NCBI GenBank assembly: GCA_030247885.1
Contig: JAPDRO010000011.1
Span: 930,001-994,000 of the forward strand
Direction: 5' to 3'
Source: Taxawa tesnikishii (nom. ined.)
Lineage: Eukaryota; Ascomycota; Dothideomycetes; Dothideales
DNA length: 64,000 nt
Made by a program: the position numbers and the translations under genes
The notes under the pieces: generated by a model
What the model was told of the DNA's origin: nothing
The model's input: only the letters and a program-made list of their open reading frames with translations
Database searches by the model: none
In this document: positions 133 to 55,543 of the stretch, one piece after another
How the letters are laid out: each line of letters begins with the position of its first letter
Numbering within the stretch: position 1 is the stretch's first letter

Positions 133-3100
133 ATGTGGGACGACGATAACGATCGGTTTGACAAGGTCCCCGTCCTGTCTCCATCACGAAGCAATGCCCA
201 AGAGAACCTGATCGATCTCGACACCGAGGTCGAGGTAAGTGCGAGGCGCTTGCTGCAAGGCAACGGATAATTGAACGACGTCCAGAAACTGCAGCATGCA
301 TTACCACAAGCGACGACAAGGGAGAGGGCGTTGGAGATTGCTATTCGCTCTGCAGAGCTGTCGATGAACGCGTTGAAACTGGCCGACGGGGCGGAGCTGC
401 GGAGCACATACAATGCCCAAGTGAAGACTCTCCTGCAACAAGCTGAGCGGATCAAGACGGGTCCAGATTGGAATTCGCCGCCCAAATCGAAGCCCTTGTT
501 AAGTGCTGGCACGCAGAAAGCTCAACCGCCCAATGTCAAACGTCTCAAAGAACCGGTTTCGACGCGCCAAAAGGCCAAAAATGAGGAGATAATCATCTTG
601 AAGAATTCGTGGGTGAACGGGTTCAAGTTCGTACCATGGGATGGACCACCAAGCGATGTCGTTTTCGAGCTGGACCACGAGAAGGGACTGTTCCTGTGAG
701 ACTTGCCCGAAGCTCGCCTCAGCGTTATCTGACAAGTGCAACAGGGACACACCAGAGTTGAAGCTGTCGCGTAAACAGATGGAAGTCTTCGGCGGCTGGA
801 AGCGCGCAGAAGAGGCTCTGCCGCCTCCCACCTGGATATCAGAGGAGAACTCACAAGCAGGTCCTTCCATGACATTCGCCAAGAAGGTGGATTTGGTACA
901 GGATGCGGCAACGGATTGCTCGGTGGTTGCAAGCTTGTGTGCCGGCACCGCTCGTGCTGAACGTGGACATCCTAAGGTAGGCATATAGAAGCAATGCGAC
1001 TGTAAACGGAACGACTCATCATCAATCTAGCTTCTGAGTTCGATCATTTTTCCTTACGATACAAAGAACTCACGACCAGCCATCTCGGCTAATGGCAGGT
1101 ATATCGTGCGCCTCAACTTCAACGGAACGTACAGACGCGTCGATATTGACGATCGTCTGCCCGTTTCCAAGACTTCTCGGTTTCTCCATGTCATCGACAG
1201 GCATAATCCGGGCCTGCTATGGCCGGCGCTCATGGAGAAGGCCTATCTCAAAGTCAGAGGTGGTTACGACTTCCCCGGCAGTAACTCTGGTACCGATCTA
1301 TGGATCCTGACAGGCTGGATTCCGGAGCAGCTGTTCTTGCAGAGGTAAGCCCACCTTTATTGACGAGTCTCAACTGCATATGGCAGTCAGTCATTGTAAG
1401 ACCTATGTGAAGGTACAATGGTGTCCAAATCTCACTACGATCAACAGCTACTGCAACTTGTGCTGCCCCGAGGTTGGCCGGCCTGCCAGAGGGCAGTGAA
1501 TCAGCCCCAACCCCTTGGGCCAGTCTGTTGACAGCAGGATGCCTTCAAAACGCTTCGCCTTAGTACACTCCAGCTTCACTGGCTGGCCACATGGCCGTTG
1601 GAACGCGTGTCATCTATCAGATCTATGGGCTGACACGAGATAGCGACGACATAATGCCAAACGCCATCTGGAAAAGAATTTTCAAAGCCCACAGCTTCGG
1701 CGACGTCCTGATCACCATAGGCACGGGGAAGATGTCTAAGCGTGAAGAACGAGAGATCGGACTGGCAGGAGAACACGACTACGCCGTCCTTGATATGCGC
1801 GAAGTTGACGGACAGAAGCTCATGCTCATAAAAATCCTTGGTGTGAGGGTACCTCCTGGCGCGGAAGCACGCCCAAACTCAACGCTTCCGGCGAGGGCAA
1901 CTTGACCGCGGATAACCATGATGATGACGATGATCCTCTGCCTTCTTCTCGCGATTTGCTCAATGCGGATGCGCAGCTTTCTCCTGGTACATTCTGGATG
2001 GACCTGAATAGCATCCTGCAACACTTCGAGTCTATCTACTTGAATTGGAATCCAGGCCTCTTCAAGTACCGACAAGACCTGCACTTCCGGTGGGATCTTT
2101 CGCCTAACACACCTGCAGCTGCTTCTCGTGGACGCTACAGCAGTTTGAGCAACAACCCGCAGTTCTCAGTTTCTGTGGAGGACGGCGGCACCGCCTGGCT
2201 GCTGCTCAGCCGACACTTCCAAGATCCGCCGGGCGAGTCAGCATCTGAACACCACCAGACCAATGCAGCGCTGCCCCTCGGCTTTATCAGCCTCTACGCT
2301 TTCGATACCTCAGGGACTCGAGTCATGCTCAGCGACGGCGCCCTTACGCGAGGGCCTTTCGTCGACTCTCCACAAACCTTACTTCGTCTGGACAATCTCG
2401 TGTCGAACCGACCATACACCATTGTCGCCATGGAAGAAGATTTGCCGTCAATGAGGAATTGCTTCACGCTATCCACCTGGGCCAATTCCAAGATTCAGAT
2501 CGATCATGCCATGGACAGATATCCGCACCAGGTCACCGTCAATTCTTGCTGGACTAAAGAAACAGCAGGAGGTGCCACTCACTCTCCGCTGTACGCTCAA
2601 AATCCTCAGTTTGCTATAGTCGTGCCTAGCCGCACACCCATTTCTTTGCTGGTTCAAACAGCAACAGACCACCTCAACGTCCACACCAAGCTCGTGCACG
2701 GTCGTGGCCAACGCGTGCACTCGCTTCGCAAGCGCGACGTCGTGTTTGACTCGAGGGACTATAGACGCGGCTGCGCACTGGCTGAGCTGTCAGAACTCGA
2801 CCCTGGTACCTATACCATCATTTGCTCGACTTTCGAAGCGGGCCAGCTCGGCGACTTCAGTCTCAGGGTCGACAGCACGGTTCCCGTCCATCTGACCCAA
2901 CTCGCCAAAGAAGGCGCGGGCAGGATCAACATCAAGCTCGCACCCGCCACCTTCCTCACCGGCGACCGCAAAGTTGTCGCTCCACTGGTCCCACGTCGTC
3001 TGGCGAAAGTCATGGTTTCCGTCAAACATAAACCAACCACCCCGTTCCAGCGCGCAGCACACCCCGTCGCGAGTGCAGCCTGATCCGTGTCTCCATCGAG

Positions 3101-3349
3101 CGGGGCGTTGGTCCGCATCGCCAGTTCGTCATCACGAGCGGCAACGGCGATTACGCGGATTCGGCGAACGGCATGAGGACGGAGGAAGTCGATGTCAACC
3201 CGACCATGGCCAAGAACGTGGGCATGTGGCTGGTCATCGAGCGGATGAGCACGCCGAGAGAGAACGCCGAGGAGCAGTTTGAGGTTGACTTGTTCTGCGA
3301 CGTGCCGGACGCGATCGGTGTCGGGGTCTGGAGGGCGTGGGAGGAATGA
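133..3349 (+). CDS. palB: PalB/Rim13 calpain-like cysteine protease
   Basis: Signalling protease of the fungal ambient-pH (Pal/Rim) pathway, which in this family cleaves the PacC/Rim101 factor at ESCRT-decorated endosomes. Exons seen: 133-234, 286-695, 745-976, 1031-1344 and about 1644-3349, with introns of 51, 49, 54 and about 299 bp; the last boundary is my best fit. An N-terminal MIT domain lies at about residues 35-105. The calpain core has the Cys in DCSVVASLCA, the His in GEHDYAVLDM and the Asn of an IKNPW motif; C2-like beta-sandwich domains follow to the end. About 920 residues, close to the family length. The frame slips by one base at the A-run 1830-1834, exactly in the NPW motif, and again near 3030-3050; one added base in each place restores conserved sequence. 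I read these as sequence errors, not a dead gene. Confidence 0.88.
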
Positions 3350-7772: not shown

Positions 7773-9478
7773 CTACTTTCCCTTCCCCTTCCCCTTCCCC
7801 TTGTCTTTATCTCGGAAGCTCTCCGCCACGTCTCTTTTGACTTTGGCATCCAGATTCAGTGCTCCGTGGCCTTTGAGCTCTTTCTCATACATCTCCATAA
7901 TCTTCTTCATCTCCTCATCTTCGTCCCGTTCCATCTCCTCATCTTCCTCCATCTCGAGTGCCAGCTTTCTCGCCTCATCAAGCAAACCCGACTTCTCAAC
8001 CTCATCGGGCGGCATCCCCATCATTTCGCGCATAGCCTGCTCGAACTCCTTCTCGTCAAACGAACCGTCCTTATCTTCCCCTTCACTGTCCAATTCAGAA
8101 GATCCAGTCGATTCGTCGTCATCAAAGTCCATATCTTCCAACTCTTCTGCACCCTCGGCGCCGGCGCTCTCGTCGTTCAGGAAATCCTCGAATCTTGAGA
8201 CCATCTTCCTGAGGTTTGCCTGCGCAGATGCGTCACCAAATCCATCAGTGTCTGCATCTTCTTTCCCACCCGCGAGTTCCTTCTCGAAATCTTCGTAGTT
8301 GATATCCAGCCACTTCTCATCATCCACCGTCTTCGTCCATGTCGAAACTTCTGCATCCGAAGGCAGTTCGTCCTCGCCGTCTTCTATATCCTCCAGCAGC
8401 AGCTTGATCTCCCTCACGGCGCGCTTGTCCTGGTTCTGTGGATCTTGAAGCATCATCTCGAACCCGCAAGTGAGCTTCATGCCGGTGGAAGTTTTAGGAT
8501 CTTTAATGTGCGGTAACACCGAGGTCCACGATAGCGGTAGCGGAAACTCCTGTGATCGCAGCTGCGCGTATCCGACTCTGGTGAACTTCGCGCTGACTTC
8601 GACGAAATCCTCTGGAGGGAAGAACAGTGTTGAGGTGTCCTTGGTTTTGAGTGGCTTCATAGAGATGGGATCCCGGAGATAGAATGCTTCAACTGCAGGG
8701 GAGACATACGAAGGGTTAGCGTGGAGTATGAAGGCCAGCATCCGTGGGATGGAAACGATTGCACGATGTAAAGAGGCAGCTATGGCGCCAGGAAACTCTC
8801 GCAAACGATAGAACGCCTCTTCCTCAATGCCCGATGAATGGAGCAAGGCCTCCGGTGAAGTGGTGATAAAATCCAGCGCCGTTTTGGATGATATTGACGG
8901 GGGTGAAGGAGTCGTATTCTGCGAGGAATGACAGTCTAACGGTATGACCTTCAGATGGCCGTCATTCATCCAGACTCTGTTCTCAGCAACCTCCGGATTA
9001 AGCCACTTGGGCAGAGCATTTGCCGCTTCTATGAGCAAGAACTCGCCATCTGTGTCGTAGACTCGTATCCAGGCCTCAGGGAATTGCTTGCTAAGTTGCC
9101 ACAATAGGTAAACTACGAGCCATTCATCGGCAACAGAATCGCCGAAATTTGTTCTTCCGTGCAGAACATATGGGTTCCAACCTCCTCGGCTGTGCTCCGG
9201 TACTGCTTTACTAGCGTCTTTCAAAAAGTCATCTCGAAGACCCAGTTCCAGTGTGAAAGAATCGCGTTGCCATATGTAATCCCTGAGCAGTTTCCCGTCA
9301 AGTCCTTCGCCGCATCTTGAATCTCTCTGAGTCTCTTGCGGATAGGGACATCGTGCTTCAGCTTGTCGTCGATAACGTAGATTATATATTCCACACAGTC
9401 CTCCGGAAGTCGTTTCGGGAATCCCTCGAATCCCTCGCCAAACCACTTGAAATCATCATCCTGCGGCGGAATATCCAT
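7773..9478 (-). CDS. Ecdysoneless/SGT1-family protein
   Basis: Member of the Ecd (Pfam SGT1) family, linked to splicing and transcription in other eukaryotes and unrelated to the Hsp90 co-chaperone Sgt1. The start at 9478 gives MDIPPQDDDFKWFGEGFEGF, the usual N-terminus. The family core follows: RLPEDCVEYIIYVIDD, then KLLRDYIWQRDSFTLEL, DEWLVVYLLWQLSKQFPEAW and FPGAIAASLHRA. The C-terminal third is strongly acidic (DEEMERDEDEEMKK) and ends in a GKGKGKGK tail. About 568 residues. The conserved block is contiguous across the T-run at 9291-9293, but the frame changes there and one added base joins the halves. It stands head to head with clpP with 158 bp between the starts. Confidence 0.87.
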
Positions 9479-9636
9479 TTCTGCGTCTGCGGCGACAAAT
9501 GAGAGATCAAGGTGAAAGAGAATGTCCAAGCTCCTGCATAGACGCCTCTTCCGTCGAAGCCCACGCTCGGACCGCCTCTTGATTGACCATCTTCACGTGT
9601 GAAGCTGCCTTGACTTGACTCCCGCCCATCACCAAA
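9479..9636. promoter_or_regulatory. Shared divergent promoter, ecdysoneless/clpP
   Basis: Only 158 bp separate the two divergent starts, so both genes must draw on the same upstream sequence. I see no clear TATA box. Confidence 0.5.
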
Positions 9637-10506
9637 ATGTCGCACACTGCACTACGGGCCCTACGCTCAAAAGCCCTCAGCAATGCCACCCGGAACGGGT
9701 TGAGGACGTTCACGACTCTCCCTCCATATCCTCCCACACACAATGCGACACCCGCACGGCCGCCGCAGGGCGCAATGCCCATGCCCTTCGTGACGGAGAC
9801 GGTGGTAAGTTCCCTCTTCATTATCCTGATATGCATATTATACTGACCGTCTAGGGAGGTGGCTGGCATACTTGTGCGTCCTCTCTGCATACTCATCGAC
9901 CATATCACTAATTCCACTATCTGAATGCTCACTAACCACGCCAACCTTTTACAGACGATATCTTCTCCCGGCTTCTGAAAGAGCGCATCATCTGCCTCAA
10001 TGGCGAAGTAGACGAAACCATGTCCGCGTCGATAGTCGCCCAGCTCCTCTTCCTCGAAGCCGACGCCCCGCAAAAGTCCATCTCCCTCTACATAAACTCG
10101 CCCGGCGGCATTGTAACCGCGGGTCTCGCCATCTACGACACAATGACCTACATCCGCTCTCCCGTCTCGACCATCTGCATCGGGCAAGCCGCGTCTATGG
10201 GCTCCCTCTTACTCTGCGGCGGCCAGGCGGGAGAGCGGTATTGCCTGCCACACTCGAGGATCATGATTCACCAGGTGTCGGGGGTTACTCGGGGCAAGCG
10301 AGCGATATCGCCATTCACGCCAAAGAGATTCTGAGGTGCGGCAGCAGTTGAATGAGATCTATATGCGGCATTTGACCAAGAAGCACACGTTGGAGGAGAT
10401 CGAAAAGTACATGGAGAGAGACTATTTTATGGGCGCTAAGGAGGCATTGGAATTCGGAATTGTGGATAAGATCCTGGACAGGAGGGAGAGCGACCAACGC
10501 GACTGA
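9637..10506 (+). CDS. clpP: Mitochondrial ATP-dependent Clp protease, proteolytic subunit
   Basis: Serine peptidase of the mitochondrial matrix ClpXP machine. Three exons: 9637-9804, 9855-9873 (a 19-bp micro-exon giving GGGWHT) and 9955-10506, with introns of 50 and 81 bp. The first ~40 residues are rich in Arg, Ser, Thr and Ala with no acidic cluster, as in a mitochondrial presequence. The catalytic triad is visible: Ser in [10 protein letters not shown], His in RIMIHQ, Asp in MERDYF. The signatures [16 protein letters not shown] and INSPGG are present. The frame slips twice in 60 bp, at the G-run 10280-10284 and the GG at 10335-10336; each needs one more G, after which the normal sequence runs on to ...ESDQRD and a stop. 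About 240 residues. ClpP is absent from budding yeasts but present in many filamentous fungi. Confidence 0.9.
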
Positions 10507-12226: not shown

Positions 12227-12836
12227 TGTAGGGAATAGACAATGTCGTCACGCTTGCGAAGGACCAAGCGATGGAGTGACTGCGACCAGATGTTGCAACT
12301 GTCAAAGTGAGGTTGGAGCAACACCAACGCCAACACCAACACCAGCACCGATACCAACAGAAACAGGTTAAGGCACGGACAGATATCGATAACGCTAGCG
12401 TATGTACCCCACAAACCCACCAATCCACTGGTCCACTTCCCCTCCATCTTCCTCTTTTGACAGGTGACCTTCCAGGCTTCTCCAACGCATTTAGCCTCAT
12501 CTATCTCAACAGAGAATGCATCTCACTCAGCGCCCGCCAAGACTGATATTAACCGGCGCATATTCCCAAATGGCTGCGACTCACGAGTGCCTTCACTGTA
12601 GTGACACCACCAAGAGGAACTACGGTCCGGAATTTCCTCCTTGCACTTCCCGCATTCGAACTTAATTGCCGGTATACCCGATACCTGTAATGGCATGACC
12701 GAAGACGAGGGGTATAACACCACCCTCAGCCCCCGCATCATGGTCTTCGTACTCACTACCAGCCTGCTGGACTACACTACACGAGTATAGTCGAGATAGC
12801 CTATTAGTTCCTGTATACAACCATCAAGAGAGCATC
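12227..12836. promoter_or_regulatory. Divergent intergenic region MED9 / dioxygenase
   Basis: 610 bp between two divergent starts. It holds a CAACAC/CACCAG-type simple repeat at about 12320-12360 and nothing else I recognise. A minus-strand open frame across it is low-complexity (Cys/Trp-rich) and is not supported. Confidence 0.45.
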
Positions 12837-13968
12837 ATGGCCGGTCCATACAAGCAACTCACCCAAGAAGATGTCGACCACTTCCTGGCCCACGGTTGGG
12901 TCAAGATCCCCGGCTGCTTCACCCAAGAAGACTCTGACCGCGTCTGCTCCTCAGTCTGGACCCGTCTAGGTATGGATCCGTCAGACAAGAGCACCTGGCA
13001 CACCGAACGCATCAACATGCCATCGCACAACTACTTCTCCGCCGCCGAATTCGCTCCCAAAGCCTGGTCCGCCATCTGCGATCTCGTAGGCGGCGAGGAC
13101 CGCGTTGCCGACTTCAACCGCACCTGGAACGATGGCCTCATCGTAAACCTGGGCACTCCTGAGGGTGACGGGAGGTTGGTGACGGGAAACCAACTGCAGG
13201 GGTGGCACGTTGACGGAGACTTCTTCGTGCACTTCCTCGACTCACCAGAGCAGGGCTTGCTGGTCATCCCCCTATTTACTGATATCAAGGAGGGTGCTGG
13301 TGGAACCATGATCTGCCCCGGTGCCATTCCACACATTGCTAAACATCTGGTTCGTCCCCTCATCCTCATCCTCACCCTCATCCCCTCTCCTACCGTCCTA
13401 CCACCCAACCATACTCCCATCTTCCCCTCCGCCTCCTACGTGTGTTGTACTGACAACCCACAGCACGACCACCCAGAAGGCGTATCCCCGCGCATGACGC
13501 CCCGAGCCCAAAACCCAAAAATGCACCCGGAAACGAACCTGAAGTTCTACAACGATCTCGCCGCCACATTCCCCCTTCCGCTTTCGTCGAAGCAACCGGA
13601 AAGGTCGGTGACGTCTACCTCCTGCACCCACTCATGCTTCACAGCGCCTCGAACAACATGCTCCGCATCCCGCGCATCATCACCAACCCGCCCGTCTCGC
13701 TCAACGCGCCCTTCGATTTCGACCGTGAAGACGAGACCCAGTACAGCGTCGTGGAGCGCAAGACGTTGGCCGCGTTGGGTAAGGATAGGTTGCGGGGTGG
13801 AAGATCGCCGGAGCACGGGATAGAGTAGTGCCGGAGCGGTTGAGGAAGCAGAATGCGATGAAGGAGGAGGAATTGAAGAGGTTGGAGGAGATTAAGATGA
13901 AGGCTGCCAACGTCAGTGTCCGGGAGATTGGGCTCAGTAAGCCTGGTGTCATGGAGAGTTTTACGTAG
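12837..13968 (+). CDS. Phytanoyl-CoA dioxygenase-family protein
   Basis: Fe(II)/2-oxoglutarate-dependent oxygenase of the PhyH family; the substrate is not predictable. Exons 12837-13349 and 13464-13968, with a 114-bp pyrimidine-rich intron. The metal-binding HxD sits in GWHVDGDFF; the distal His is in YLLHPLMLHSAS, followed by RIPRIITNPPV whose Arg can bind 2-oxoglutarate. The C-terminus is helical and charged (RLRKQNAMKEEELKRLEEIK). About 338 residues. The frame slips at the C-run 13571-13575 and the G-run 13794-13797; one extra base in each restores the distal His motif and the C-terminal helix. No peroxisomal SKL tail is seen (it ends ..VMESFT). Confidence 0.85.
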
Positions 13969-14173: not shown

Positions 14174-17100
14174 CTAAACCCAATCAACTGCATCACCGGT
14201 ACAGAACCTCCGCAGTAAAAGACGCTGCGCTGCAGAAACTCGAAGAAAAAAAGCGAAAAAAAAAGGGTATCGACGTCGTTCCGACAATAACAAAACGAAG
14301 AAACAACAGCAAGCCCAGGAACACGGCAACGCCAAAAAAAGAAAAAGAAAACGAAAACGAGAAAAGAAAAAGCGCAACACGTGGGCGGCAACACTCAAAG
14401 GCTGCCTCAAAAAGGCTGCTGGCGTGACGAACCATACAAAGCTGTCGACCAGGCGGACGTAGAGCAAACCGTAAAGCACCCGGAGCGTGCAGTCGATGGA
14501 AAGAGCAGACGGAGAAGCGAGAAGATCAAAGGCGCCTCTGATCTTCGCATACAGCTCCGTATCCAGGAAGTTGTAATTCGGGTCAGAGAAGCAGAACGGA
14601 GCTCTCAGGAGCGTTTCCGCAGTCGGACGATCGGCGGGATCACTGTTCATTCCCCAGTCAGTCTTGATTCCACCCTTCCCCATTTTCTTTTCTCTCTCTC
14701 TCTCTCTTCAAACCCTCTATTCCTTTCGGGGGGGGGTGTGTGTGTTTTACTCACATAGTAAAGCAATCGTACATGAAACTCAAAGCCGCAGGCCCAACAA
14801 CACTGCTCACATCATCCGGGATCGGGGGTGCCTGATTCAGACTTCCGAGTTTGTAGATCGCACCGACGGCCTCCTCCTTGCTCCACGGTCTGCGTCCGGC
14901 GAACATCTCCAGCACCACGCACCCGAGCGACCAGATGTCGACTTTGGCACTGTAGCCCTGACTGAAAGCGGCGTTTGGATCGATTTCCCCGTTCGCGTTC
15001 GGGACGTTGAGGGCTTGCGATTGCGCTCGGATCACCTCGGGCGCCATCCAGAAGACGGACCCTTGCATCGAGTTCGTGATGTCGTTGTTGTACGGGTTGC
15101 GGCTGCGTTTGGAGATGCCGAAGTCGGAGATTTTGCATGTGCCGTCGAGGTCCAGGAGGATGTTGTCGGCTTTGAGGTCGCGGTGTAGGATGCCTTCTCG
15201 GTGCAAGTACGCGAGTCCGCACAAGGTTTGGCGCGTCAGGGAGCTGACGACGCTCTCTTCGAACTTGCCGTGCTTGCGCAGACAGCTGCCCACGGAGCCA
15301 CCGCTGATGTACTCGAGGAAAATGGAGATGGAGAATTCTTTGCGCTCGCAGCCGAGGTACTGGACGATGTTGACGTGGTCGAGGTGTTGCATTGTGTCGA
15401 TTTCCTGATCCAGCGCCTTCACCATTTCCCGGATTTTGGTCGGATCCGCGTTAGCGGCTTTGGGGTTTACTTCGACTTGCTTGACGGCGAGTAGCTCTCC
15501 CGTTGTCGTGTTCATACCGAGATATACGCGACCGAAAGTGCCTTTGCCGATCAGTTGACCCTTCATCCATTTGAAGGTTTGCTGGCGCTGCGGGTGCTGA
15601 TGCTGGACGCTGGATGTGGGGAGGCTGTCTTGTGGAATCGTTTCGAGCTGGATTAGCCGACTGCCGCGCGGTGGTTTGATCTGTTCGATCTTTGCGCCGA
15701 ACATCTTTGTGCTCTTGCGCCGCACAATGTCGCCCTTGAGCGTGCTCACGCGGTTGAGCAGTGGGTTTTGCATGCTTGTGCTAGGTGCACGACTGGATGC
15801 GTAGGAGGATGTGGAAAAATTAGGAGTCGTGCCTGGCATTTGGTATGCGCCTTTCACTACTTCGCGGATACTTCTTGTTCGCCCCAGAGCACCCGACTTG
15901 CGCAGATTTCGCTGCGCTACGCTCGGTAGTGGATCTCCGCGCTTCAGGGTAGACTCGTTGCTGCCAAGTGTGTCGGCCTCATCTGCGCTGGACATGGGCG
16001 TAGTGCTGCGACTCCATAGATCAGCAGAGGACGACTTCGTGCCGAGCGTGCTCTGGCCGGTGCTGGAGACGGGGCTTTGCCCACTGCTTGCGCCCGACTC
16101 TTCTTCAACCACTGGCTGATCGAGATCAACGTTCGGGAAGAACTCGTCGAGATGCTCAACAAGTGCCTCGGGAGGTGGACGGTTGGCCCAAACATCACTA
16201 GCGAAGCTCTCGCGGCGCAAAACCTGTTGCTTCCGTCGGGCGACTCGGCCGACCATGAAGTCGAAGCGGCCGACATTGGGTTGTAGTTCGCATCGACATC
16301 CGGATCGTTGGAAGGAGCGCGGGAGTCGCCAGGGGCGGGCTTTTGTGAGTCGGACTTGAAGTTTTGCCTCGAAGTCTTCACGCTAAGCGCTGGTCGAGCT
16401 GGCGATCCTGGTTTCTTCAGGTCCTCGCGAGATGCAGCAGCAGATGGCTTCTTCTTGTTAGCCAGAGGTACAGCAAATAAGCCGTCATCCGAATCTTCGT
16501 CTTCCTCTTGTGGCACCAGGGACGGGCTGTTGGCAAAGGCGACTGGTTCCTGCGGTAGATCGAAGCTAGGTCCATAGCTTCTACGGCTGCTCATACGGCT
16601 CAGGCTCGACGGAGGATGGGCGGTACTGGGGCTCACGTCAGGACTCCTCCGTCTCTTCTGTTCGTTGACATCCTTCACAGACGGGTTTGGTGGAGTCGGC
16701 ATGCTCAGTGTAAGGTTTGGTCGGGCAGCATTAGACAGGTCGATATCGTTCGGAACGTCTTTGTCGTCTTCGAAATAGTCAGGGATCTTAAACGGTACGT
16801 TGCCTTTCGACATGGTGAAGGGACTTCGTGGTGATCCACCATTGGCTGGACTGCTGCGGCCACCTGAGCCATTGCTACCATATCCAATACTAGCGAGGGA
16901 ACGTTGAGGCGGAGGGCTCGTCGCGCTGGAGCCAGTACGTCTTGACTGAGGTGTGCTGACCGACGCTGTAGGCGCTCCAACCATCCCACCCATTTTACCC
17001 GCCCCTACTAATGCAGCGCCGATACCTCCCACTGCCGGCGAATGAGGCATCGCCTTCCTCTTAGCAGGCTCACCATCCTCGGGAATTGATTCATTGGATA

Positions 17101-20100
17101 TGCGCTTGAAGGCGTCAGATGCTTTCCTGTCTGGCCAGCTTGTTCTTCCCTGAATCCCAGGCTTCTTAGTCAGTGAATTAGCCTTGAGAAGAGTAGTCGT
17201 CGGCTCCGGCACAGGTGGAGGTCTACGTGCTGGGACCAACGGTTCGCCCTTCTTGTCCTCCGTAAAAGAGAGGCCGTTTGTCATCGTACGGCGATTGCCG
17301 CGGGGCGTCAAAGTCGATGACCCTATCACGACGGATTCCTACTTCGTTTTGCCGACCGGCAGCCAACCTCTGTTGCCTCTCGGCCAAATAGGCTCTCTGC
17401 TTGCGGTCGTTTTCCCTTCTGTGCTCCTCAGCCTTGGCTTCAAGAATAGCTAGACGTTCAGCCTCCGGCAAGTTTCTGATGTCTTGCGGAGGTACATGCT
17501 GAGGAGCCTCAACCTGAAGCCGTGCATTGACAGCATCAAGCGGGACATACTCCGGTTTAACCAAATTCTGCAGAGGCTTCATTTTGTCAGGAACCAGCGT
17601 TGATTCTCCCGAGCGTACACCAGGCGAGTCAACCTCATCGTTCCCTGTCAACCGTGCGTAAGTCGTCTCATCGAGTGGCTTGGTAGGGAATGCGGTCGCG
17701 TTACTGGTGAAGTTGCCGTTTACGTCCTGGCCGAGTGGTCCTGCTGGAGACTTGCAGAAAAGCTTGAGCGTCCCCAAAGAATCTGCCAAGTGTGCACGAG
17801 TGGACATAAGTAGTGCGTCGCTCAACGGTTCATCATGCTCCGTCGCCGCACGTCCCGGGGATGTGATGTGGAAGGATACATCGGATAGATCCTTTATGCC
17901 GAGATTGAAACAAATGGTTTCGCGTACGGCCTCTATAGTCTCGGTTCCGGTAATGTCAATCAACCGATAGTTCCAGCCGTCCGGTGTTACGAAGATGAAC
18001 TTCTTCTCCGCCTCCTTGACGGTAGGTCCAGCTCTTGTAGGCATGGGCGGGATTTTCTCCGACTCTCCGTTGACGTGGCCGGATTTTCTAGATGCTGGCC
18101 TGTCAAGAGAGGTCTCGCTTGAGTTCATCCCAGACTTGCCGTATGGAATGCGACGTGATATCGCTGGACTCGTAGGAGAATCACCCTCGTGGTCATCTGG
18201 ATGGCCGTCATCTCTTCGCTTGTCCCGTCTCATGAACTTGGGCAAGAAATTCTTGTGCTCTTTCGCGCTCGCAGGCGTTTCTCCACTGGCATGTCGGGTG
18301 CCGTCCGCGGGTGGTGGACGAGATTCTTCACGACCATTTCTTCTATTCTCAACAGATGGGACTTTCGTAAAACTGCCATCGCTCATATTACTAGCGGCGC
18401 TGACCCTGTTGGGGCCAAGATTCGACAAGTGTGTTTCTGAACTGCTGACACGATTGTGTCCGTAATATCTGTTTTGACCTGACCCGGGCGTACCGGCTGG
18501 ACGAGCACTCTGTAGAGCAGGGCTGTGCTGTGGACTGGACTCGAAGCCTTGCCTGTGACCTTGAGCACTTTGTGTTCCTCCAGGATGCAGTTCCGCAGAG
18601 GCGCTCGGGCTATGACGACGTGGTATATCGCCAACGCTTTTCAGGATGCTTTCAGAATAAGCGCTTCTCTCAATGTGTCCGTGATCGCTTTTGGCGGTAG
18701 CAAGATGACTTAGGCTGTCCAAGGTGGCTGCCCGTTGCGCGGAAACCCTTCTTTGGGCTAGCGACCCTGGATTGTTGTGTATACTCAATGGCATCTGCCT
18801 CCCGGGGCTGTCCTCGCCTCCGCCTGCCGTAGTTGGCGTCGATCCAAAAGCTGTGATGTCCTGTCGGCTCAAGTTGGGCGAGTTCTCAACCCCTCCATCT
18901 GTGCCTGCACTTTGGAGGAATTGGTTGGATCCTCTTCGCGGATTTCGCAAGGGAAGACTTGAGGAACTAGCGCTAGGCGCGCTACTTCCACCTGTCTCGA
19001 TGATTCTGCGTATCAGCTTTCTGACACGTCTGCTTTCCGTCCTTTCTTTTGTTTCGTCCCAGACGACTCCAGCAGCAGTACACTGTTTGGCGAGTTCAGG
19101 GAAGATGCCTCCAGAACCGTGCATGAGACCTGCGTTTCTTGACGAGCGCCCAAGCTCAAGGAACTGCGCTCCGTGAATATTCAAATTCTTGAACGTTTCC
19201 TGCCACGCATTTGAGAAACCTTCTGCTGCAAGCCAGATGAGTACACGATCCAAGGGCCATTGGAGATCTTCCGGAGAAGCTGGCGTTTCCCCTGAACCGC
19301 TGTGGTCACGTTGTTGCGGGATATTTTGGGCTTCAGGTCTCGCAAGGGTCGCTGCCTGTGGAGCGGGCGAGGAATATCCTTGTCTCTCGGGGGCCGGCAA
19401 CACAAAGAACTGCTGTCTACTGGAAGGGGTTGGTGGCCCAGGTGGTGGTTGCTGTTGCAGAGCCTGCGCCATGGCGCTCTGATGTACTGGCGGATGTTGC
19501 TGCTGCTGATGCGCTTGCTGTTGGTAATAGTAAACACTCTGGCCGTTCCCAAGAAATCGCGCCATGTCATTGGATGCAGAAAAATCATCGCTGCCGCCTC
19601 TGACATAACTAGGTTGTTGTGGCAATTGCGGTCTCATAGTATGCGCAGGGGTATGCGAACTATGCAAAGGTGGAATCCCAACACCAGGTCCAAAAGAGTC
19701 CGCTCCTGGAATATACGTCGCAGAGACCAAGGGCTGACCGTCCGTGGGCAACGGCGGCATGTTCATGTAAGCAGAGTAATCACTGGGATCATACGCTCTA
19801 GGTTCCCTTGGTGCAGGAGCTGAGGGCAGCGGTGGATAAGCTGGTTGCCTGTTCCATTGGTTCCATCCCTGCTGTGAAACCGGCGGAGGAGGAATCATCA
19901 TGCCATGTGGCTGACTAGCGCTCGGAGGCGGTCTAGGCGGAGGCGGTGGCAGATTTATCCCTCCGGGTGCAGGAGTAGGGTTGACCGGAGGAGGTGGAGG
20001 AGGAGGAGGAACATATTGTCTGGCTGACTGGTCGGCCTGTGCGGCCGAGACGTGACGCTGTTGCGGCGTTGGATAGTTTGTATGCATCATTCCCCGGGGG

Positions 20101-20128
20101 TAACCGGTGTCCCTCTTCTGTACAACTC

Positions 20129-20165
<37 letters not shown>

Positions 20166-20437
20166 GTGACATCGAACGTTTGCGCTCGCGGCCTTGGACT
20201 TGTGGAGAAGGGCGCGGGTGTGCCAGACAGGGCAGGGTAAGGCGAATTTGCGCCGCCGGAGGGTCGCAGTAGTGATGATGGGTCGTTGAATGTCGGGATG
20301 TCGTTCAACACGATTCCACCAGGTTGGAGGTAATTCTGACCGCGGAATGTGCCTGGCGGAGGAGTCGCGTGTCGGTTGTCGACCTCTGAATTGTTGGAGA
20401 GATTGGAGCCGGAGCGATGGCGCGACTGAGGGTTCAT
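14174..20437 (-). CDS. BCK1: Bck1-type MAP kinase kinase kinase, cell-wall integrity pathway
   Basis: MAPKKK acting between Pkc1 and the Mkk/Slt2 kinases. The start at 20437 (MNPQSRHRSGSNLSNN) is followed by a poly-Gln run, poly-Pro tracts, a SAM-like domain (LQWPLDRVLIWLAAEGFSNA) and a ubiquitin-like/Ras-binding-like segment (KKFIFVTPDGWNYRLIDITG). The kinase domain is complete: Gly loop LIGKGTFGRVYLG, Lys in AVKQVEV, HRDLKADN, DFGISKR, GSVFWMAPEV. A 112-bp intron (14643-14754) splits the last part, which resumes as DPADRPTAETLL and reaches YNFLDTELYAKIRGAF. Frames slip near 20092-20100, 17247-17266 (here the sign is opposite), 16258-16259, and perhaps 14528-14530. The conserved C-terminus would stop at KIRGAF; as written the frame runs about 110 residues further to 14174. 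About 1,740 residues to KIRGAF. Confidence 0.9.
14690..14745 (+). repeat. Intronic (TC)n and poly-G/GT tract in BCK1
   Basis: The last BCK1 intron holds a TC dinucleotide run, then a G9-10 run and GT repeats, as read on the plus strand. Such tracts are prone to slippage. Confidence 0.8.
20127..20163 (-). repeat. Coding CAG repeat (poly-Gln) in BCK1
   Basis: GCT/GTT triplets on the plus strand encode about twelve glutamines near residue 100 of Bck1. The tract is in frame with the N-terminus that starts at 20437. Confidence 0.85.
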
Positions 20438-41687: not shown

Positions 41688-42023
41688 AACCCCTAAGAAT
41701 TTTAGCTCTTTTTAGCGTCTTTCTAAAAACAAAGTCGTTTCAGAGCTATCTAGAAAGACAAGTATAACATAGAGCTAGATGGGTTTACTTCTCTACTTAT
41801 AGTCTAGCTATTACTCGATAGACTAGTAGTATTAGGCGGATCTATCTAACAACTATCTTATCTTCGACTAAAGCTTTACTGACGTGATAATAGGACAAGA
41901 CATTGCAGGCAGCAATATAGATGTAGGTATTTAGTGAGTATCGTCGCCCCCTTCCCTTACAGATCATCATTAATTCCACATGCCACATTGGCCTGCTCCA
42001 GAGGAAGATAAGATGCTGCCACA
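41688..42023. other. Intergenic between transposon island and F-box gene
   Basis: The sequence returns to host composition within about 200 bp of the transposon end. It contains the presumed promoter of the F-box gene and nothing else I recognise. Confidence 0.5.
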
Positions 42024-42955
42024 ATGCCATCGGTCGCAGACGTTCTGTCCACATACGAACTTCTTGAATTAATCCTGAGATACCTCGATGTTCGTACACT
42101 TCTCCTCGCCCAGCGTGTCTCCCATTTCTTCAAGGCCGCAATCTGCACCTCGCCCCTCCTCCAACAGATCCTCTTCTTCCGCCCCGTCCCCGCGGCCGTT
42201 CCAAAAGTCCGAATGCCCTCAACATCCGGCGCAGCCAACAGCGCATCACCCGCCGACCACTGCTTCACAATCAACCCACTGCTCGCACAATACTTCATCC
42301 CTTGGTTCGCCACCCTCTACAACTCACAATCTCGCAATCGTGTTTTCAGTGACTTCTCCTCCCTGCACGACTTGCCTTGGAACCTTTCCGGCTGGCACAA
42401 ATCCTTCTTCGCGTATCCTCGCGCCAGCTGGCGTCGCATGTATCTCACGCAACCACCACATCACCACCTTACCATCCGACTAACCTGCCAAGGGATGGGG
42501 GATATTACTGTGCGGTCGCCACCCTCCCCTTCCCCGACGGCGTGCGCATGTGCGTGGTGTACGATATCACGCAGCAGTACGTCACGGTCGACGAGACGGA
42601 GCATGGATTCCGGCTTTTCGTATCCAAAAGCGCGGAGAGCGCTGTGGTGGGGATGTGGAGAATGAGTGAGATCGAACGCTTGCGAAGGGTTTGGCCGGAG
42701 GGCGAGACGCTTTGTCTGGCGTTGCAGGAGATGCAAACATGTTGTGTGGATTTCTTCAGAGAGCCCAATGCGAGGCAGTGGATTTATTCTGACAGGATAG
42801 GGCGGAACAAGTGGGATGCGGACTACTGGAAGGAGCTGAAGTGGGAGAAAGACGGAGCGGAATTGAGTGCTATGTTCGGGGATGATATGGTGGGGGATAC
42901 TGTGTCTGAGGATGCTGTGTTCGAGGATGAACTATTTGATTTGATGGCTGTGTGA
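42024..42955 (+). CDS. F-box-like protein
   Basis: The N-terminus carries an F-box-type helix set, YELLELILRYLDVRTLLLAQ then RVSHFFKAAICTSPLLQQ, which in fungi links substrates to Skp1/Cullin ubiquitin ligases. The rest (about 260 residues) has no domain known to me; short blocks such as PWNLSGWHKSFF and ASWRRMYLTQPP are typical of the large Dothideomycete family of lone F-box proteins. The acidic C-terminus ends ELFDLMAV. About 310 residues, single exon. The frame slips at GG 42524-42525; one more G gives TVRVATLPFPDGVRMCVVYD. It sits directly beside a transposon island, usual for this fast-expanding family. Confidence 0.72.
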
Positions 42956-44359
42956 TGCCAGGGCTGGCATTACGTTGCTACATACGCATCAAACGCATAG
43001 CTACGTTTATATGAAGCCGGATATAGTAATGCTTGTATAGCCAGAATCTCCATGTAGTTAATGTAACTAACGGGGAAGTGGATTAGTTCAAGACAGATAT
43101 TACTAGACCTTGTCAGGTAGGTGAGAGCTTGACATTGTAGCGGGCTAGCTTAAGGGTGGATGACCCAAACTAAACTCAGTCAAGAGGCTCACTTTCCGAG
43201 CTAATATATCATCTCGTCAGTTATGTCAGTCAGAGTCAAGCCTAGTAGACTTAAGATATCTTTGATACCTATTTGTCTCGGAAAGCTCGATCTTTCCCTA
43301 ACCCGTAAACCGATTTCCAGTGACAAAATGCTTTGGGCCAACCTCGTCCCATTGCCCGCAGTATGCCACACAGGAAGCCCTTGCTCGGCCAAAGCCACTG
43401 GGGAGTCAATCTGGAAAGCGTACGAGGCAGCGGAGGCTCGATATGGATTTCGGCTCGCGCACCGCTAAGGAAAGCCATCTACATGGGCCTATATTGAGAA
43501 CCCACACGTTCGCCTCAAAGTTTGGTGTTTCGTGTCGAAATGCGTCGGAAACTGTGCAATGCAGTCTCGGGGCAGTCCTTACAATCCAGTCCAACCTCTG
43601 GATGACCTCCTCTTGTCGCTCTCGGCGAATTTGACACAACGCCTCCCAGTCATTCTGACGATGACCAGCTTGTAGCTGTCGATCCGGTAGCGAGACCGAT
43701 GCAAGACTTCCAGCAGGCGTTTATTGCTACAGCGCTCCGCGAGCCATTTCCACAGCATCTTGCCGTAGTTGAGTATCTCAATGTCCTGGCGTCTCCCGGC
43801 ACATATGACTAAATCTTTCGGCTGGATGCAAATCTGCACGTGGCATATCAGACTCTGCGCGGAGCGCTGCACCTATGCACCGCGTCGCTCTCGCAATCCC
43901 AGATCCCAACGGGGAGTTGCTCTTGCAACGATATCTCTCCTCTCTTCACGTTCCATACTTCGGTGTGGCACTGCACAAGACTTGCACAAAGACCCTCATC
44001 GGAAAGAGAACAGCATACTAGCGATGACGACAACAAAACACTTTTCGGAACGAGCAGTTGGCAGCAAGGTCGGTCGTCGGTGGATGATGTTGCAGCATAG
44101 AGCGAACCGTGCCAGCCTTAGCGAGGTAGCGCGGGTGGTCGGCGCTCGGAGCCCCGACAAAGCGAGCCGTGCATTCACAACCAATCGGAACCATCGCCTT
44201 GTGGCTGGGGGTTACCTCTCGGATCCCGAGCGCTTATACCCCGACAACGACCAGAACCAGTACAAATTCACGCGGCAATGCACACTCACTCAACGCTGCC
44301 TCTCTTCAACCTGCATCACCTCCTTAACACCAACAACACTCAGTGCATTGCAATCTGCT
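42956..44359. other. Unassigned stretch, possibly a gene relic
   Basis: Normal host composition with several modest open frames on both strands, notably minus 43406-43639 and 43579-43872. The latter reads LWKWLAERCSNKRLLEVLHR in a helical pattern. I cannot match any family, and no start-to-stop model stands out. A worn gene on the minus strand is possible; the last few hundred bases are the monooxygenase promoter. Confidence 0.35.
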
Positions 44360-45609
44360 ATGCGTGTGCTAATCAGCGGCGCGGGCATCGCTGGCCCCAC
44401 ATTGGCGTGGTTCCTGGCTAAGACGCCCTCACGCATCACCGTCCTGAGAAGAGCAATGGCCTCCGTTCAGAAGGCCACAACATCGACCTCGACGGCAGCG
44501 CGATCAACATCGTTAAGAAGATGGGCATATTAGACGAAATCGAACGGCTCCACACTACGGAAGTAGGCACACGAATCCTGGGCTCTGACGGGAAAACCAT
44601 CGCCTCATTTCCCTTCAAGAAAGGCTCGTCCATCGACCCTACCTCGGAATATGAGATTCTACGCGGGGACTTGGCAACAATTCTATATGAGGCTAGCAAG
44701 GACCGCCCACATGTTGAGTACATGTTCGGTACCACGGTTGACAAGGTTCTGCAGAACGGTAGGGACGCTGTCAAGGTCCGCTTAAGTAACGGCGAGGTAC
44801 GCGAGTTTGACCTTGTGGTGGCAGCAGACGGTCAATGGTCGAAGCTACGAAAGTTGTGCTTCCCTTCAGAATCCGTTCAAGTGGTCGACAAGGACATGTA
44901 TATCGTCTACTGTACAATCCCTCGCCTGCCTGAGGACACTAATTGGTGGAACTGCTACATAGGCCTGGAGTCGAGAGATATTACCCTCAGGCCCGACCCA
45001 CACGGCACTATCAGAGCAATGTTCACTAAAATGCCGTGCGATGACACGCAGAGGAAGGCTTGGCAAGACGCGATTAGAGGTGACAAGGCAACGCAGAGGA
45101 AGCTCTTCAAGGATACGTACGCAGATGCAGGATGGCAGGCACAAAGAATCCTAAACGCTATGGACAAGTCACCCGACTTCTACTTCCAGGCAGTCCAGCG
45201 GATCAGGATGTCCAAATGGTCTAGTGGCCGTGTGGTCTGCTTAGGAGACGCCGCCTTTGCTCCGACGCCGATCTCAGGGATGGGTACCACTTCAGCCATC
45301 CACGCAGCATACATACTTGCAGGCGAACTCAGCAAGCTCGATGAAGGAGAACATCCTGCTCGCGCTCTCGAGGCGTACGAAATTGCCTTGCGCCCGACAA
45401 TCGAGAAAATCCAAAATTCTCCCGATTACCCGAGCGTCATGCATCCCAGGACAGCATGGCACATATGGCTGCTTCAATCAACCATGTGGGCAGTTACACA
45501 AGTCGTGCAAATTCCCTTTGTGGCAAGCAGGTTCCTGCAGAGCCGCGAAGACCATTTCTCGATGCCAGAGTACCCAAAACTCAATGAGGAGAGCTCACCG
45601 AGACTCTAG
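44360..45609 (+). CDS. FAD-dependent monooxygenase (aromatic hydroxylase type)
   Basis: Flavoprotein hydroxylase using NAD(P)H and O2. The Rossmann motif GAGIAGPTLAWFLA begins at residue 7. The DG motif appears as VVAADGQWSKLR, and the second FAD motif as GDAAFAPTPISGMGTTSAI. No signal peptide. About 416 residues, single exon, usual for the salicylate-hydroxylase/TetX-like group. The frame slips at a G of 44446: one more G gives ITVLEKSNGLRSEGHNIDLD. Neighbours (PKS fossil, pump, regulator, P450s) suggest that it tailors an aromatic polyketide; that is inference from context. Confidence 0.88.
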
Positions 45610-47717: not shown

Positions 47718-49781
47718 ATGCCTGAGCTCATCAAGAACCATGCGGACATCGAGTCTACGCATCTCGAGGACTTGTCGCTCGAGGCCTTGCCAGTTGACTT
47801 GGATGATCCTCACCGAGCTGCCTTGGAAAACAATCCAGACCACGCCGAAAGGCCGTCATTGGCGACCATACTTGCAGTCCTGGTGAGTACAGTCTTCCAT
47901 GCGTTCTTGTTGATATTGACCAGAGCATAGTCCCTGGCGCTTTCCTACATCTGCCCGATCTCGTGCGGATTTATACTCGTCACTGGTATCATCGTGCGCG
48001 TGGAAACAGATCTCGGGGCCACGTCGGGCCAGATAACCTGGCTCGTTGGTGGCTGGTCCATCGCCTCGTCCGTATCTTTCTCAATGGCGGGTAGTTTAAG
48101 CGACGTTTTCGGCAGGCGATACACTATAATATCCGGCCAACTTATTTGCATCGTCGGCTCGGTATGCATTCGACCTGTATCGCGGTATTCTTCGTTAACA
48201 CGGTCCAGATCATCGCTGCTACGGCTCACAAAGCAAATGCTATCATCATTGGATCAACCTTCTTGGGCTTTGGTTGCGGTATCATCTTCGTTAGCTATGC
48301 TGGCATTTCGGAACTGCTACCCAACAAATGGCGGTCAGTACAACACCCTCTTCTGTGATCGTGTCGGACTGAGTCTCTTCAGGGGCGCCGGCCTGGCGTC
48401 GACGGAAGCCGCGATCAATCTCCCATGGGGCATTGCTGCCGTTCTCATCGCTACCTTACTGGCTGTGAGGACTTCTCAAGGCTGGAGATGGTGCTACTGG
48501 CTCGGCGTGATCTTCGGAGTCGTTAGCTTGCTTGGCACTTTGACCTTCTATTTTCCACCATCGCGACCACAGATGGACTACGAAAAGACCCGGTGGGAAG
48601 AGTTCAAACAGCTTGACTTCGTTGGACTTGTGTTGTACACCGGAGGCCTCACCACATTCCTCGTTGGCTTGACCTGGGCTGGGCAGGCAGGCCATGCCTG
48701 GCGAAGTGCCTCCGTTATTGCTCCCATCATTGTTGGATTTTTACCTTGGCAGCGTGTTTCGTCTATGATTTCACCGTCGCCTCCCGACCACTGTTCCCAT
48801 TGGAGATATTCAAACAGGTCCGTGACTTCACGGTCCTACTTGGTATAGTTTTCGTTGCCGGTACGTTCGTTTTGACCATTACTCCGATCAGTGACTGACC
48901 AACGTAGGTATGATATTCTATTCCATGTCGGCTTTGTTGCCCCAAGGATCCCTCTTTATCTTCACCAATGATCCATGGGAGATTGGTTATCTTGCATTAC
49001 CCAGCGGCATTTTACAGGTGAGGTCAAACCGCCACAAGGCCGCTGTGTTATCGCTAATGTCCTCAAGTTCCTCTTCGGCGCTGTCGCATCGGCACTCCTG
49101 GGCGTCTTCAAGCATCTAAAGGTGCAGATGCTCGTGGCGCTTTCGATCCAGACGATATTCACTGCGTGTCTGGCAGCTGCGATACCTCAGAACAAGATCG
49201 CATGGGCTGCGCTGCAGGCGTTCTCGACTGGACCGTTTGCGCTGGTTGTCCTTGCCTGCTATGTGATCGCGGGCCTCAACATTCCCTTGCGATACTTAGG
49301 GCTTGCGTCTGGGCTTGTCGGAACATTCAGAAGCGCAGGTGGTAGTGTCGGCAACGCTATCTTCAACGCTATCTTGAACGGAGTCGTCTCTCGCGACCTT
49401 GCTCCCGCCATAGCGGAAGCAGCCATATCGGAAGGATTCGACCCACAGCATCTGAGCGCCTTGATTCCTGCAACAATCGAGGCTGCTGTCGGGGTGCCTG
49501 GTGCATTCAGCGCTGTTCCCGGCATCCAACCTGCTATTGAGGAAGCAGTGCTCCGTGCTTTCAGAGGAGTGTATGCGAAAGCATTCCGAATGATCTTCTT
49601 TGCCACGATCCCGTTCGGAATACTGGCTATCATATTTGCTTGTCTTATGCGCGACCCTTCGAAGTATTTGACCAACCATACCGCCATCCATATGGAGAGA
49701 GAGGGCATGTTCAAGAACTCCTATGGCCACCGAGACCAGCATGTGAAGAAGACGCCAGTGGATGATGGAGAGCACAGGTGA
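47718..49781 (+). CDS. TRI12-like MFS efflux pump (DHA2 type, 14 helices)
   Basis: Proton antiporter of the fungal trichothecene-efflux-pump group, which typically exports cluster products or xenobiotics across the plasma membrane. Exons: 47718-47882, 47931-48161, 48209-48333, 48383-48860 and 48908-49781; introns are 47-49 bp. A hydrophilic acidic N-terminus of about 50 residues precedes SYICPISCGFILVTGIIV. Motifs: QITWLVGGWSIASSVSF, LSDVFGRRYTIISGQ (motif A), ELLPNKWRGAGLASTEAAIN and INLPWGIAAVLIATLL. The C-terminal half has AGLNIPLRYLGLASGLVGTF. About 620 residues. Frame slips are at T-run 48738-48742 and at GG 49017-49018, each cured by one base. Confidence 0.87.
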
Positions 49782-52775: not shown

Positions 52776-53837
52776 GCTTTGAACCTCGTCCCTGTTTCCT
52801 TCTTGACCCGCACCGTATCGCTTATCCTACGACTTGACGTTGCCACGCCTATGTTTCCAAACTAGTTTCCGCTGTTACAGTACTCAAATTCCAGCTTCTC
52901 CGGGAACAGTTGATGCTTGGCGGAGAAGCGTGACTTCTGTGGGGGTGCGGGGGAACTCTACAGACCATGGCTGCGTTACGTAATCCTAAGAACACGTGCT
53001 GACTAGATACACATCTTTTAGCAAGTACACTCACTCCAGAGCGTGTGTTGAGCCGATTGAATGTCGACGTCTATGTCTGCACGATGCCGAACCCAAAGTT
53101 CAGAGTCGAGCCCACGTTGAGACATTGACAGCCACGCTCAGATCATCTTTGTAGACTGCAGAAGACGCACCAAACCAATAGCAGTCACCACGAACACGGA
53201 ATGCAGCACGACCCATCACAAGGTGGTCGAGCGCGCATCTAACCGAGTAAGAACCCACGGTTTCCTGTCCACTTTCCGGCGAGCACACATGAGTAGCGCT
53301 GCGACGACAGATGGCATCTACGGAGACACGCATCTGGGAGAATGACGCGTCATGCGTTGTTATCGGCTTGTAGTGTTACTCGAATGGGGTTCCGCTGGGT
53401 TTGTTCGAACTCCTGGTTTGGAAGCAAGCCCTGTATCCGCTTTGCAGCTCCCTCAAGCCACAAACGGTTTCGCCCAATCAATTTCGCTCCCCACCTCATC
53501 TCCTTAGATGTGGGGCTGCACATGATTGGATGACTACCCCACTCTTTGTCTCTGGAGCCAGACGCCGTGTAGACTAATCACGTCTTCTATACATCTTCGT
53601 AAGGTGCTCTACTGGATAGGACATTGTGGGGACCCTGCTCACATTTACTCGTCCTACAGCGGGAATGGAAGATCGGCTGTCCCACATGCGGATGTGTGAG
53701 AATTACGATGCCGGCAGGTCAGCTGTGGAGCGTCGGACATCGAGAGTTCGTCCTAATAAGCATGGTCTCGCACCTGCAGGAGAGCGTGTTCGAGACTTAG
53801 ATTTCGAACACCCGATCCTTTCAATTTCCCCTGCACC
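52776..53837. promoter_or_regulatory. Divergent promoter region, regulator / P450-1
   Basis: 1.06 kb between two divergent starts. No coding region, repeat or clear operator seen by eye. Confidence 0.45.
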
Positions 53838-55543
53838 ATGGTTGCTGGCACTTTGACCACGTTAGTGTCGCGTTCGACGGCATGGTTGACGGCTTCCACT
53901 CGAGCGCATCTATCCCTAGTTGCTGCAGGTTTCGTCGTCCTCGGCATTGTTTTCTACGGACTTATCGACTACGGACGAGTCTTGGCAAAGAGGCAGAAAT
54001 TGCCCCCGGTCCGTTTCCTTTGCCTTTTGTAGGCAATCATTTTCAGATCAAGCTCCCACGGCCATGGTTATGGCTAGACGCCCTATCAAAGCAATATGAT
54101 AGCTCGATGATAACAATATGGCATGGCCATAAGCCGAGCATATTCATTCACGATGCCTGGACCATATCGGACATGTTGGAGAAGCGCGCGAACATCTATT
54201 CGTCTAGACCACCGCTAGTGATGCTGGGCGATTCGAGAGGCGCTACGGAATATGATCAGGCAGTCCTTGCATATGGAGATGTTTGGAGGCAACACCGTCG
54301 CCTTATGCACACAGCCGTCGGCACGCAAGCCGTCCGAGCATACCGTCCGCTCCAGGATAAGGAGATCAAGGTCATGATGCGCGATCTGCTCTCACAGCCA
54401 GATAACTTTGTGAAAGCAATCGAGCGATACTCGGTGTCCGTCGTTTCATGCATTGGATTTGGCCGGCGCATCGACAAGATGGACGACAACGTCGGTCAAG
54501 TTGCACTCAAATTCATGGAAGGAGTCGACTTGGTCATACCTGGTATGTTCCTCATGGAGTCAATGCCTATTCTTCTGCAACTGCCCCGTATGATATATCC
54601 TCTCAGCGCCAAGAGCTTGGGAAATGGAAAGAAGATGATCCAGTTCTTCTCAGCCTTGTGCAAGGAGGCTGGCATGTCCACGCAAGACAACTTCGCCAAG
54701 GGTCTTCTCAGGGCACAACAGCAGAATGGTTTGCGCGATGAGGAAATTGCATTCCTGACAGGCAATCTCATTGGTGGAGGCGTCGATACTACAGCAAGCA
54801 CTACAATCACTTTCATCTTCGCCATGTGTGTTTTTTCCGACGTCCAAAAGAAGGCCCAAGAGGAGCTTGATCGAGTCGTTGGGGATAGGATGCCGGATTG
54901 GCAGGATGAGGCTCGATTATCATATATCCGGGCCCTGGTAGATGAGACCCTGCGGTGGAGAACTGTGACCATTCTCGGAGGAATACCGCATGCGAACACT
55001 GAGGAAGATGTTTTCGGAGACTATGTCATCCCAAAGGACACTTGGATTGCTGGCAATATCTGGAGCATTCACCGCAATCCTACCGACTTCCCTGAGCCGG
55101 ATATCTTCAGGCCAGAGCGATTTCTCAACGAGAAGAAACCCTTCCCTAGTAAGAAAGGCCATGCTGCGTTTGGATGGGGCCGCCGAGCATGCAGCGGACA
55201 GCCACTTGCCGAACAAGGATTATTCATGACTTTTGCCCGACTTCTATGGGCCTTTGATCTTCGTCCAGGCTTGGATGAGAACGTAAGTATTGCTTGCAGC
55301 ACCCAGCTCATGTGACGTACACTGATACTGACGTTACTGGCTCCACAGGGAATAGAACAAAAGCTTGATATCTTTGCCTTCACCGAGTCAGAGAACATGC
55401 GTCCTGAACCTTTCAGAGTGCGAATCTCTCCACGTACTGAGCAGAAGAAGGCACTTATCCTAGAGGAGGCTGCTCACGCGAGAGATCAGTTAAGAGAATT
55501 CGACGGAATTACGAAAGTCGAACTAGAGCCGCTCGAGATTTAG
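53838..55543 (+). CDS. Cytochrome P450 monooxygenase 1
   Basis: Membrane-anchored ER P450. The start at 53838 gives an N-terminal anchor, LSLVAAGFVVLGIVFYGLI, and a Pro-rich hinge KLPPGPFPLPFVGNHF. The I-helix is GNLIGGGVDTTAST, the ExxR motif is in DETLRWR and the heme loop is FGWGRRACSGQPLAEQ with the Cys ligand. Exons 53838-55282 and 55349-55543, with a 66-bp intron. About 546 residues. The frame slips at C-run 54003-54007 in the hinge; one more C joins anchor to core. The N-terminal half resembles fungal O-methylsterigmatocystin-oxidoreductase-like P450s (CYP64-type) as I recall them; the substrate is unknown. Confidence 0.9.

What the first reader, a model, noticed from the sequence alone, without database searches (positions are those of the whole stretch)
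1830..54009. About twenty one-base homopolymer shortfalls break almost every conserved gene
Frame changes fall inside conserved motifs at 1830-1834, ~3030-3050, 9291-9293, 10280-10284, 10335-10336, 12141-12143, 13571-13575, 13794-13797, 20092-20100, 16258-16259, 23227-23229, 24337-24341, 25559-25564, 26563-26567, 27957-27960, 42524-42525, 44446, 48738-48742, 49017-49018 and 54003-54007. Each lies at a short run of one base and each is cured by exactly one more of that base; only 17247-17266 has the opposite sign. Independent genes on both strands share the pattern, which decay would not produce. This is the signature of under-called homopolymers in a long-read assembly. Automatic gene models here will be split or wrong.
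Basis: partly seen in the sequence, partly recalled or inferred. Interest (0 to 1): 0.7.

Follow-up and report, generated by a model that had tools for sequence, protein, structure and literature searches.

The report
Missing-base errors in a fungal assembly
The broken genes in this stretch of a fungal genome are almost certainly a sequencing and assembly error, in which single bases were dropped, often where one letter is repeated, and not a biological feature.

Summary
The window lies in a 29.4 Mb genome of 34 contigs, a filamentous fungus by its gene content. All 20 listed frame changes are present with the sign of one missing base; one further site (17247-17266) has the opposite sign. They touch 14 of 17 genes that I recognise. 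Introns do not explain the best cases: in ClpP, found once in the genome, 11 profile positions span 31 bases instead of 33.

The cause is not local. On 20 other contigs a coding-frame model with equal priors lost to 10 extra bases (29:2 at a stricter prior). Five conserved domains elsewhere are split with no room for an intron, all with the missing-base sign. Runs of C, G and A fall off sharply after five bases, and outside the window runs of exactly five sit at missing-sign breaks three to four times as often as short runs. A published nanopore study reports base callers that cap runs at 5 bases.

Qualifications: only 9 of 20 sites have a run of five or more within 6 bases; T runs show no deficit in GC-rich sequence; split domains elsewhere are rarer than in the window. 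No reads were available, so the platform is inferred. Artefact; low interest.

The parts
1564..3346 (+). PalB-type calpain gene, two listed frame changes, both of missing-base sign
   Evidence: Peptidase_C2 (weak, E = 0.0014), Calpain_III and PalB_C pieces in different frames; frames
7776..9592 (-). SGT1-family gene (Pfam SGT1), one listed frame change, missing-base sign
   Evidence: SGT1 profile from position 35 on one side; no match on the other side; frames
9936..10503 (+). ClpP protease gene, two listed frame changes within about 55 bases, both missing-base sign; the only ClpP found in the genome
11859..12247 (-). Unidentified conserved-looking gene, one listed frame change, missing-base sign
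   Evidence: frames; not scanned against Pfam
12699..13965 (+). Phytanoyl-CoA-dioxygenase-like gene, two listed frame changes, missing-base sign
   Evidence: PhyH match very weak (E = 0.23); naming partly by eye; frames
14754..20507 (-). Long protein kinase gene (Bck1-like MAPKKK by its layout, recalled), two listed changes of missing-base sign and the one of opposite sign
   Evidence: Pkinase E = 5e-56; frames
21601..23424 (+). Pyruvate decarboxylase gene with one intron and one listed frame change, missing-base sign
24141..24511 (+). Hexapeptide acyltransferase gene, one listed frame change, missing-base sign
   Evidence: Hexapep E = 5e-7 on the downstream piece only; frames
25120..26744 (+). 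Acyltransferase-3 family gene, two listed frame changes, missing-base sign
   Evidence: successive profile stretches 2-42, 51-133, 143-298 in three pieces; frames
27475..28956 (-). Major-facilitator transporter gene, one listed frame change, missing-base sign
   Evidence: MFS_1 E = 5e-9 upstream, no match downstream; frames
42012..42952 (+). F-box gene, one listed frame change, missing-base sign
   Evidence: F-box E = 6e-5 upstream, no match downstream; frames
43769..45606 (+). FAD-dependent monooxygenase gene (open frames of both pieces), one listed frame change, missing-base sign
   Evidence: DAO 1-44 (weak) upstream, FAD_binding_3 49-345 downstream; frames
47931..49778 (+). Major-facilitator efflux gene of Pfam TRI12 family, two listed frame changes, missing-base sign
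   Evidence: TRI12 193-279 and 370-566 in two pieces; the piece between gave no match; frames
53760..55312 (+). Cytochrome P450 gene, one listed frame change near its N-terminus, missing-base sign
   Evidence: p450 2-436 in the downstream frame; frames

Best explanation
The frame changes are consensus errors. Single bases were lost, preferentially where a run of C, G or A of six or more was written as five, and also at shorter runs. An error-prone long-read assembly, most likely nanopore data from a base caller with a five-base limit and without adequate short-read polishing, would do this across the whole genome. Shown: the frame changes, their sign, their spread, the shortage of runs above five for three of four bases and the enrichment of runs of five at breaks. 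Inferred: the platform, the lack of polishing, and that the real genes are intact.
For: 20 of 20 listed changes have the missing-base sign. ClpP is 2 bases short with no intron. Frame model: 51 lost against 13 extra in 264 kb, 41 against 10 outside the window, 29 against 2 there at a stricter prior. Five split domains outside the window, all missing sign, and one GH92 domain split in L010. C, G and A runs of six or more: 2, 3 and 11 seen against 15.6, 16.6 and 31.3 expected by geometric continuation. Outside the window runs of exactly five lie at missing-sign breaks in 9 of 42 cases (14 of 48 with longer flanks) against 6-9% for runs of 1-3. Published: base callers other than Scrappie capped runs at 5 bp (PMC5889714, passages).
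Against: 7 of 20 listed sites have only runs of 2-3 within 6 bases. T runs of six or more are not short in GC-rich sequence: 21 seen, 16.1 expected. Under two other settings of the run test outside the window the missing-sign share at runs of five was 4 of 20 (with 2 of 20 extra-sign) and 3 of 22, and within the window the test has too few runs of five to show anything (1 missing and 1 extra of 6). Only 3 of 51 lost-base calls of the frame model have a run of five or more within 10 bases, though its placement is loose. Domain splits outside the window are rare, five in about 93 kb of matched sequence. A fungal nanopore study found over-prediction of run length more often after polishing (PMC7500977, passages).
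Confidence: 0.93

Rival explanations
1. The frame changes are ordinary short introns misread as frameshifts.
For: This fungus has many short introns: most neighbouring domain pieces are offset by +46 bases or more (64 of 71 pairs), and one such intron sits next to the listed change in pyruvate decarboxylase.
Against: At the best-tested sites there is no room: ClpP is 2 bases short and the acyltransferase 1 base short (coordinates). Introns would not share one frame sign in 20 of 20 cases.
Confidence: 0.02
2. The genes are real pseudogenes that decayed by small deletions.
For: Deletions often outnumber insertions in decaying genes (recalled), and the neighbouring AT-rich blocks show strong RIP-like mutation.
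Against: The changes hit unrelated genes, some expected to be needed (the only ClpP found; a CCT chaperonin and an HSP70-family gene elsewhere), the rest of each frame is kept open, and breaks favour runs of five.
Confidence: 0.03
3. The sequence is right and the cell reads through the breaks by transcriptional slippage or -1 ribosomal frameshifting.
For: The sign is the one that a -1 shift, or one added base in the RNA, would correct, and many sites lie at runs.
Against: 7 of 20 sites have only runs of 2-3 nearby, the effect would be needed in most genes, and a limit at five bases has a known technical cause.
Confidence: 0.02

Closest known systems
Homopolymer truncation by nanopore base callers (PMC5889714, passages read)
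   Same: Runs capped at about five bases, excess of deletions in the assembly.
   Different: There T and A runs were capped too; here T runs show no deficit in GC-rich sequence. The platform of this assembly is not known.
Nanopore-only assemblies of the fungus Drechmeria coniospora (PMC7500977, passages read)
   Same: Conserved fungal genes broken by indels that were mostly in homopolymers; fewer than one-sixth of 305 conserved genes predicted full length before polishing.
   Different: After polishing, errors there were more often over-long runs; here missing bases dominate.

Membership tests
Homopolymer truncation in a long-read assembly | Lost bases outnumber extra bases, across the whole genome | tested here: met
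   20 of 21 in the window; 41:10 outside it, 29:2 at a stricter prior
Homopolymer truncation in a long-read assembly | Runs above a limit are too rare | tested here: met
   C, G and A yes, T no, in GC-rich sequence; no fungal genome of known quality was at hand as a control
Homopolymer truncation in a long-read assembly | Breaks concentrate at the longest written runs | tested here: met
   9 of 42 and 14 of 48 runs of five outside the window, Fisher p = 0.001 and 3e-5 with runs treated as independent; weaker under two other settings
Homopolymer truncation in a long-read assembly | Reads show longer runs than the assembly | not testable with these tools
   No reads are held
Spliceosomal introns | A segment of about 45 bases or more lies between the coding pieces | tested here: not met
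   ClpP -2 bases; five other domain splits at -7 to +17 bases; not tested by arithmetic at every listed site
Pseudogene decay | Changes spread over dispensable genes with other signs of decay | tested here: inconclusive
   Changes also hit ClpP, a chaperonin and an HSP70-family gene; substitution patterns were not tested

The most novel reading that the evidence does not exclude
The written sequence is correct, and this fungus lacks C, G and A runs above five while reading most genes through single missing bases by polymerase slippage or -1 ribosomal frameshifting.
Probability: 0.02. Interest if true: 0.9.

Novelty: not a real feature. Interest (0 to 1): 0.1.

Why it matters
Anyone using this assembly for gene counts, pseudogene claims, cluster annotation or protein trees would be misled: genes would be split, truncated or given false tiny introns. 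It matters as a quality warning, not as biology.

Tried and rejected
Introns were considered and rejected where the frames abut. A first frame model with loose intron rules bridged breaks with many intron calls (583) and ended at 23 lost and 8 extra bases; it was replaced by one with a fixed donor, branch-point and acceptor pattern. Retraining that model made coding calls swell and extra-base calls rise (62:28 after three rounds at prior 1e-4, 96:56 at 5e-4), so the single-round version was used (66:22 at prior 3e-4). All versions lean to lost bases. A strict version of the run-length test left only one run of five to judge outside the window.

Fifteen frame-break calls outside the window, one for each locus that had a lost-base call at the strict prior, were checked with Pfam on both flanking pieces. 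One (GH92 N-terminal domain, L010) is split within the domain, one (nitrite reductase followed by a Rieske domain, L020) is split between domains, and 13 of 15 were uninformative.

Full report
What the window is. It is bases 930001-994000 of contig C3 (1,029,562 bases) of a 29.4 Mb genome in 34 contigs. Gene content (a PalB-type calpain, a fungal transcription factor domain, a TRI12-family pump, P450 genes) and many domain offsets of 46-65 bases that look like short introns point to a filamentous ascomycete. That is inference; the species is not known.

Observation. Printing all frames around the 21 sites shows a change of coding frame at each. In 20 of 20 the change is that of one missing base; at 17247-17266 it is +1, equal to -2. 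The genes lie on both strands and are unrelated.

Support at single genes. ClpP is the best: profile stretches 6-121 and 133-181 stand in different frames 31 bases apart, where 33 are needed, and the frame between carries a Clp motif (best E = 0.004). ClpP was found only once in the genome. In the acyltransferase 23 bases separate profile positions 42 and 51, where 24 are needed (coordinates; the first piece is below the family's cut-off). Pyruvate decarboxylase follows a solved enzyme to residue 485 in one frame and yeast PDC from residue 500 in another. The monooxygenase and the TRI12-family pump show successive parts in successive frames. For several other sites the piece on one side gives no family match, and the change rests on reading the frames.

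Not local. In 264 kb (the window plus 20 stretches of 10 kb, one on each of contigs C1-C20) a coding-frame model with fixed intron signals and equal priors called 51 lost and 13 extra bases in 156 kb called coding (window 10 and 3, elsewhere 41 and 10), and 35 and 3 at a tenfold stricter prior (elsewhere 29 and 2). Nine of its 10 lost-base calls in the window lie within 40 bases of a listed site, and it missed 11 of the 20 listed sites. None of its three extra-base calls in the window is the listed opposite site. Of the 20 other loci 17 have at least one lost-base call; the three without are L004, which is AT-rich with no coding called in the runs, L012 and L014. Long open frames are no shorter in the window than outside (N50 1122 against 732 bases).

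Domain arithmetic. For neighbouring pieces of conserved families I compared the bases between them with the profile positions between them. Of 71 pairs, 64 lie at +46 bases or more, as introns or inserts would. Six lie at -7 to +17: ClpP at -2, and five outside the window, all with the frame sign of one missing base (a CCT chaperonin and an HSP70-family gene at exactly -1, kinases at -7, +8 and +17, the last two with a small insert relative to the profile). One lies at +38 and is ambiguous. Against my reading, five splits in about 93 kb of matched sequence is a much lower density than 20 sites in the 34-36 kb called coding in the window. Short or weak halves are not reported, and only the best candidates are scored, which explains part of it. 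Whether the window is worse than average stays open; the frame model and open-frame lengths say that it is not.

Run lengths. In GC-rich 1-kb slices of the sample (231 kb), runs of six or more number 2 for C, 3 for G and 11 for A, where geometric continuation from runs of four and five gives 15.6, 16.6 and 31.3 (Poisson p below 1e-4 each); T shows no deficit, 21 against 16.1. Markov models of higher order, which learn the shortage, predict less of it. No fungal genome of known quality was at hand as a control. Outside the window, runs of exactly five lie at a missing-sign break in 9 of 42 testable cases (14 of 48 with longer flanks; Fisher p = 0.001 and 3e-5, runs treated as independent) and at an extra-sign break in 0 of 42 (1 of 48); runs of one to three give 6-9% missing and 4-5% extra. 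Two other settings gave 4 of 20 missing with 2 of 20 extra, and 3 of 22 missing with none extra. In the window the same test had 1 missing and 1 extra of 6, or 2 and 1 of 11 with longer flanks, too few to judge. Of the listed sites, 9 of 20 have a run of five or more within 6 bases (background 1.3%) and 13 of 20 a run of four or more (background 8.6%). The other seven need lost bases at runs of two or three.

Known counterpart. [quoted passage not shown] Passages of PMC7500977 describe nanopore-only fungal assemblies in which conserved genes were broken by indels mostly in homopolymers, although over-prediction prevailed after polishing. Of PMC8812927 I saw only the start of the abstract in the search listing: residual long-read errors are most commonly homopolymer-length errors.

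Conclusion. It is an artefact and a quality warning.

Noticed in passing
window 28500-41500 and 57500-64000; L004: AT-rich blocks (GC 23-33%) with very strong RIP-like dinucleotide indices (TpA/ApT 1.7-2.1, substrate index 0.01-0.26), against 0.5-0.7 and 1.1-1.3 in the gene-rich parts.
   Followed up: partly
contig C2: L046 (91400-92100), L047 (543076-543776), also 446853-447545 and 965093-965785: A kinase-like stretch is present twice with 701 of 701 identical bases and twice more at 95%, all on contig C2. Other kinase hits on C2 also come in look-alike sets. Unmutated copies are odd in a genome with such strong RIP; recent duplication, a mobile element or an assembly duplicate could explain it.
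   Followed up: partly
window 43769-57413: A possible metabolite gene group (monooxygenase, TRI12-family pump, zinc-finger factor, two P450 genes) lies between two AT-rich blocks; no backbone enzyme was recognised in the pieces scanned.
   Followed up: no
genome G000: No 5.8S rRNA match was found (0 matches, 39 of 883 candidates scored), so the rDNA may be missing from this assembly or was missed.
   Followed up: no
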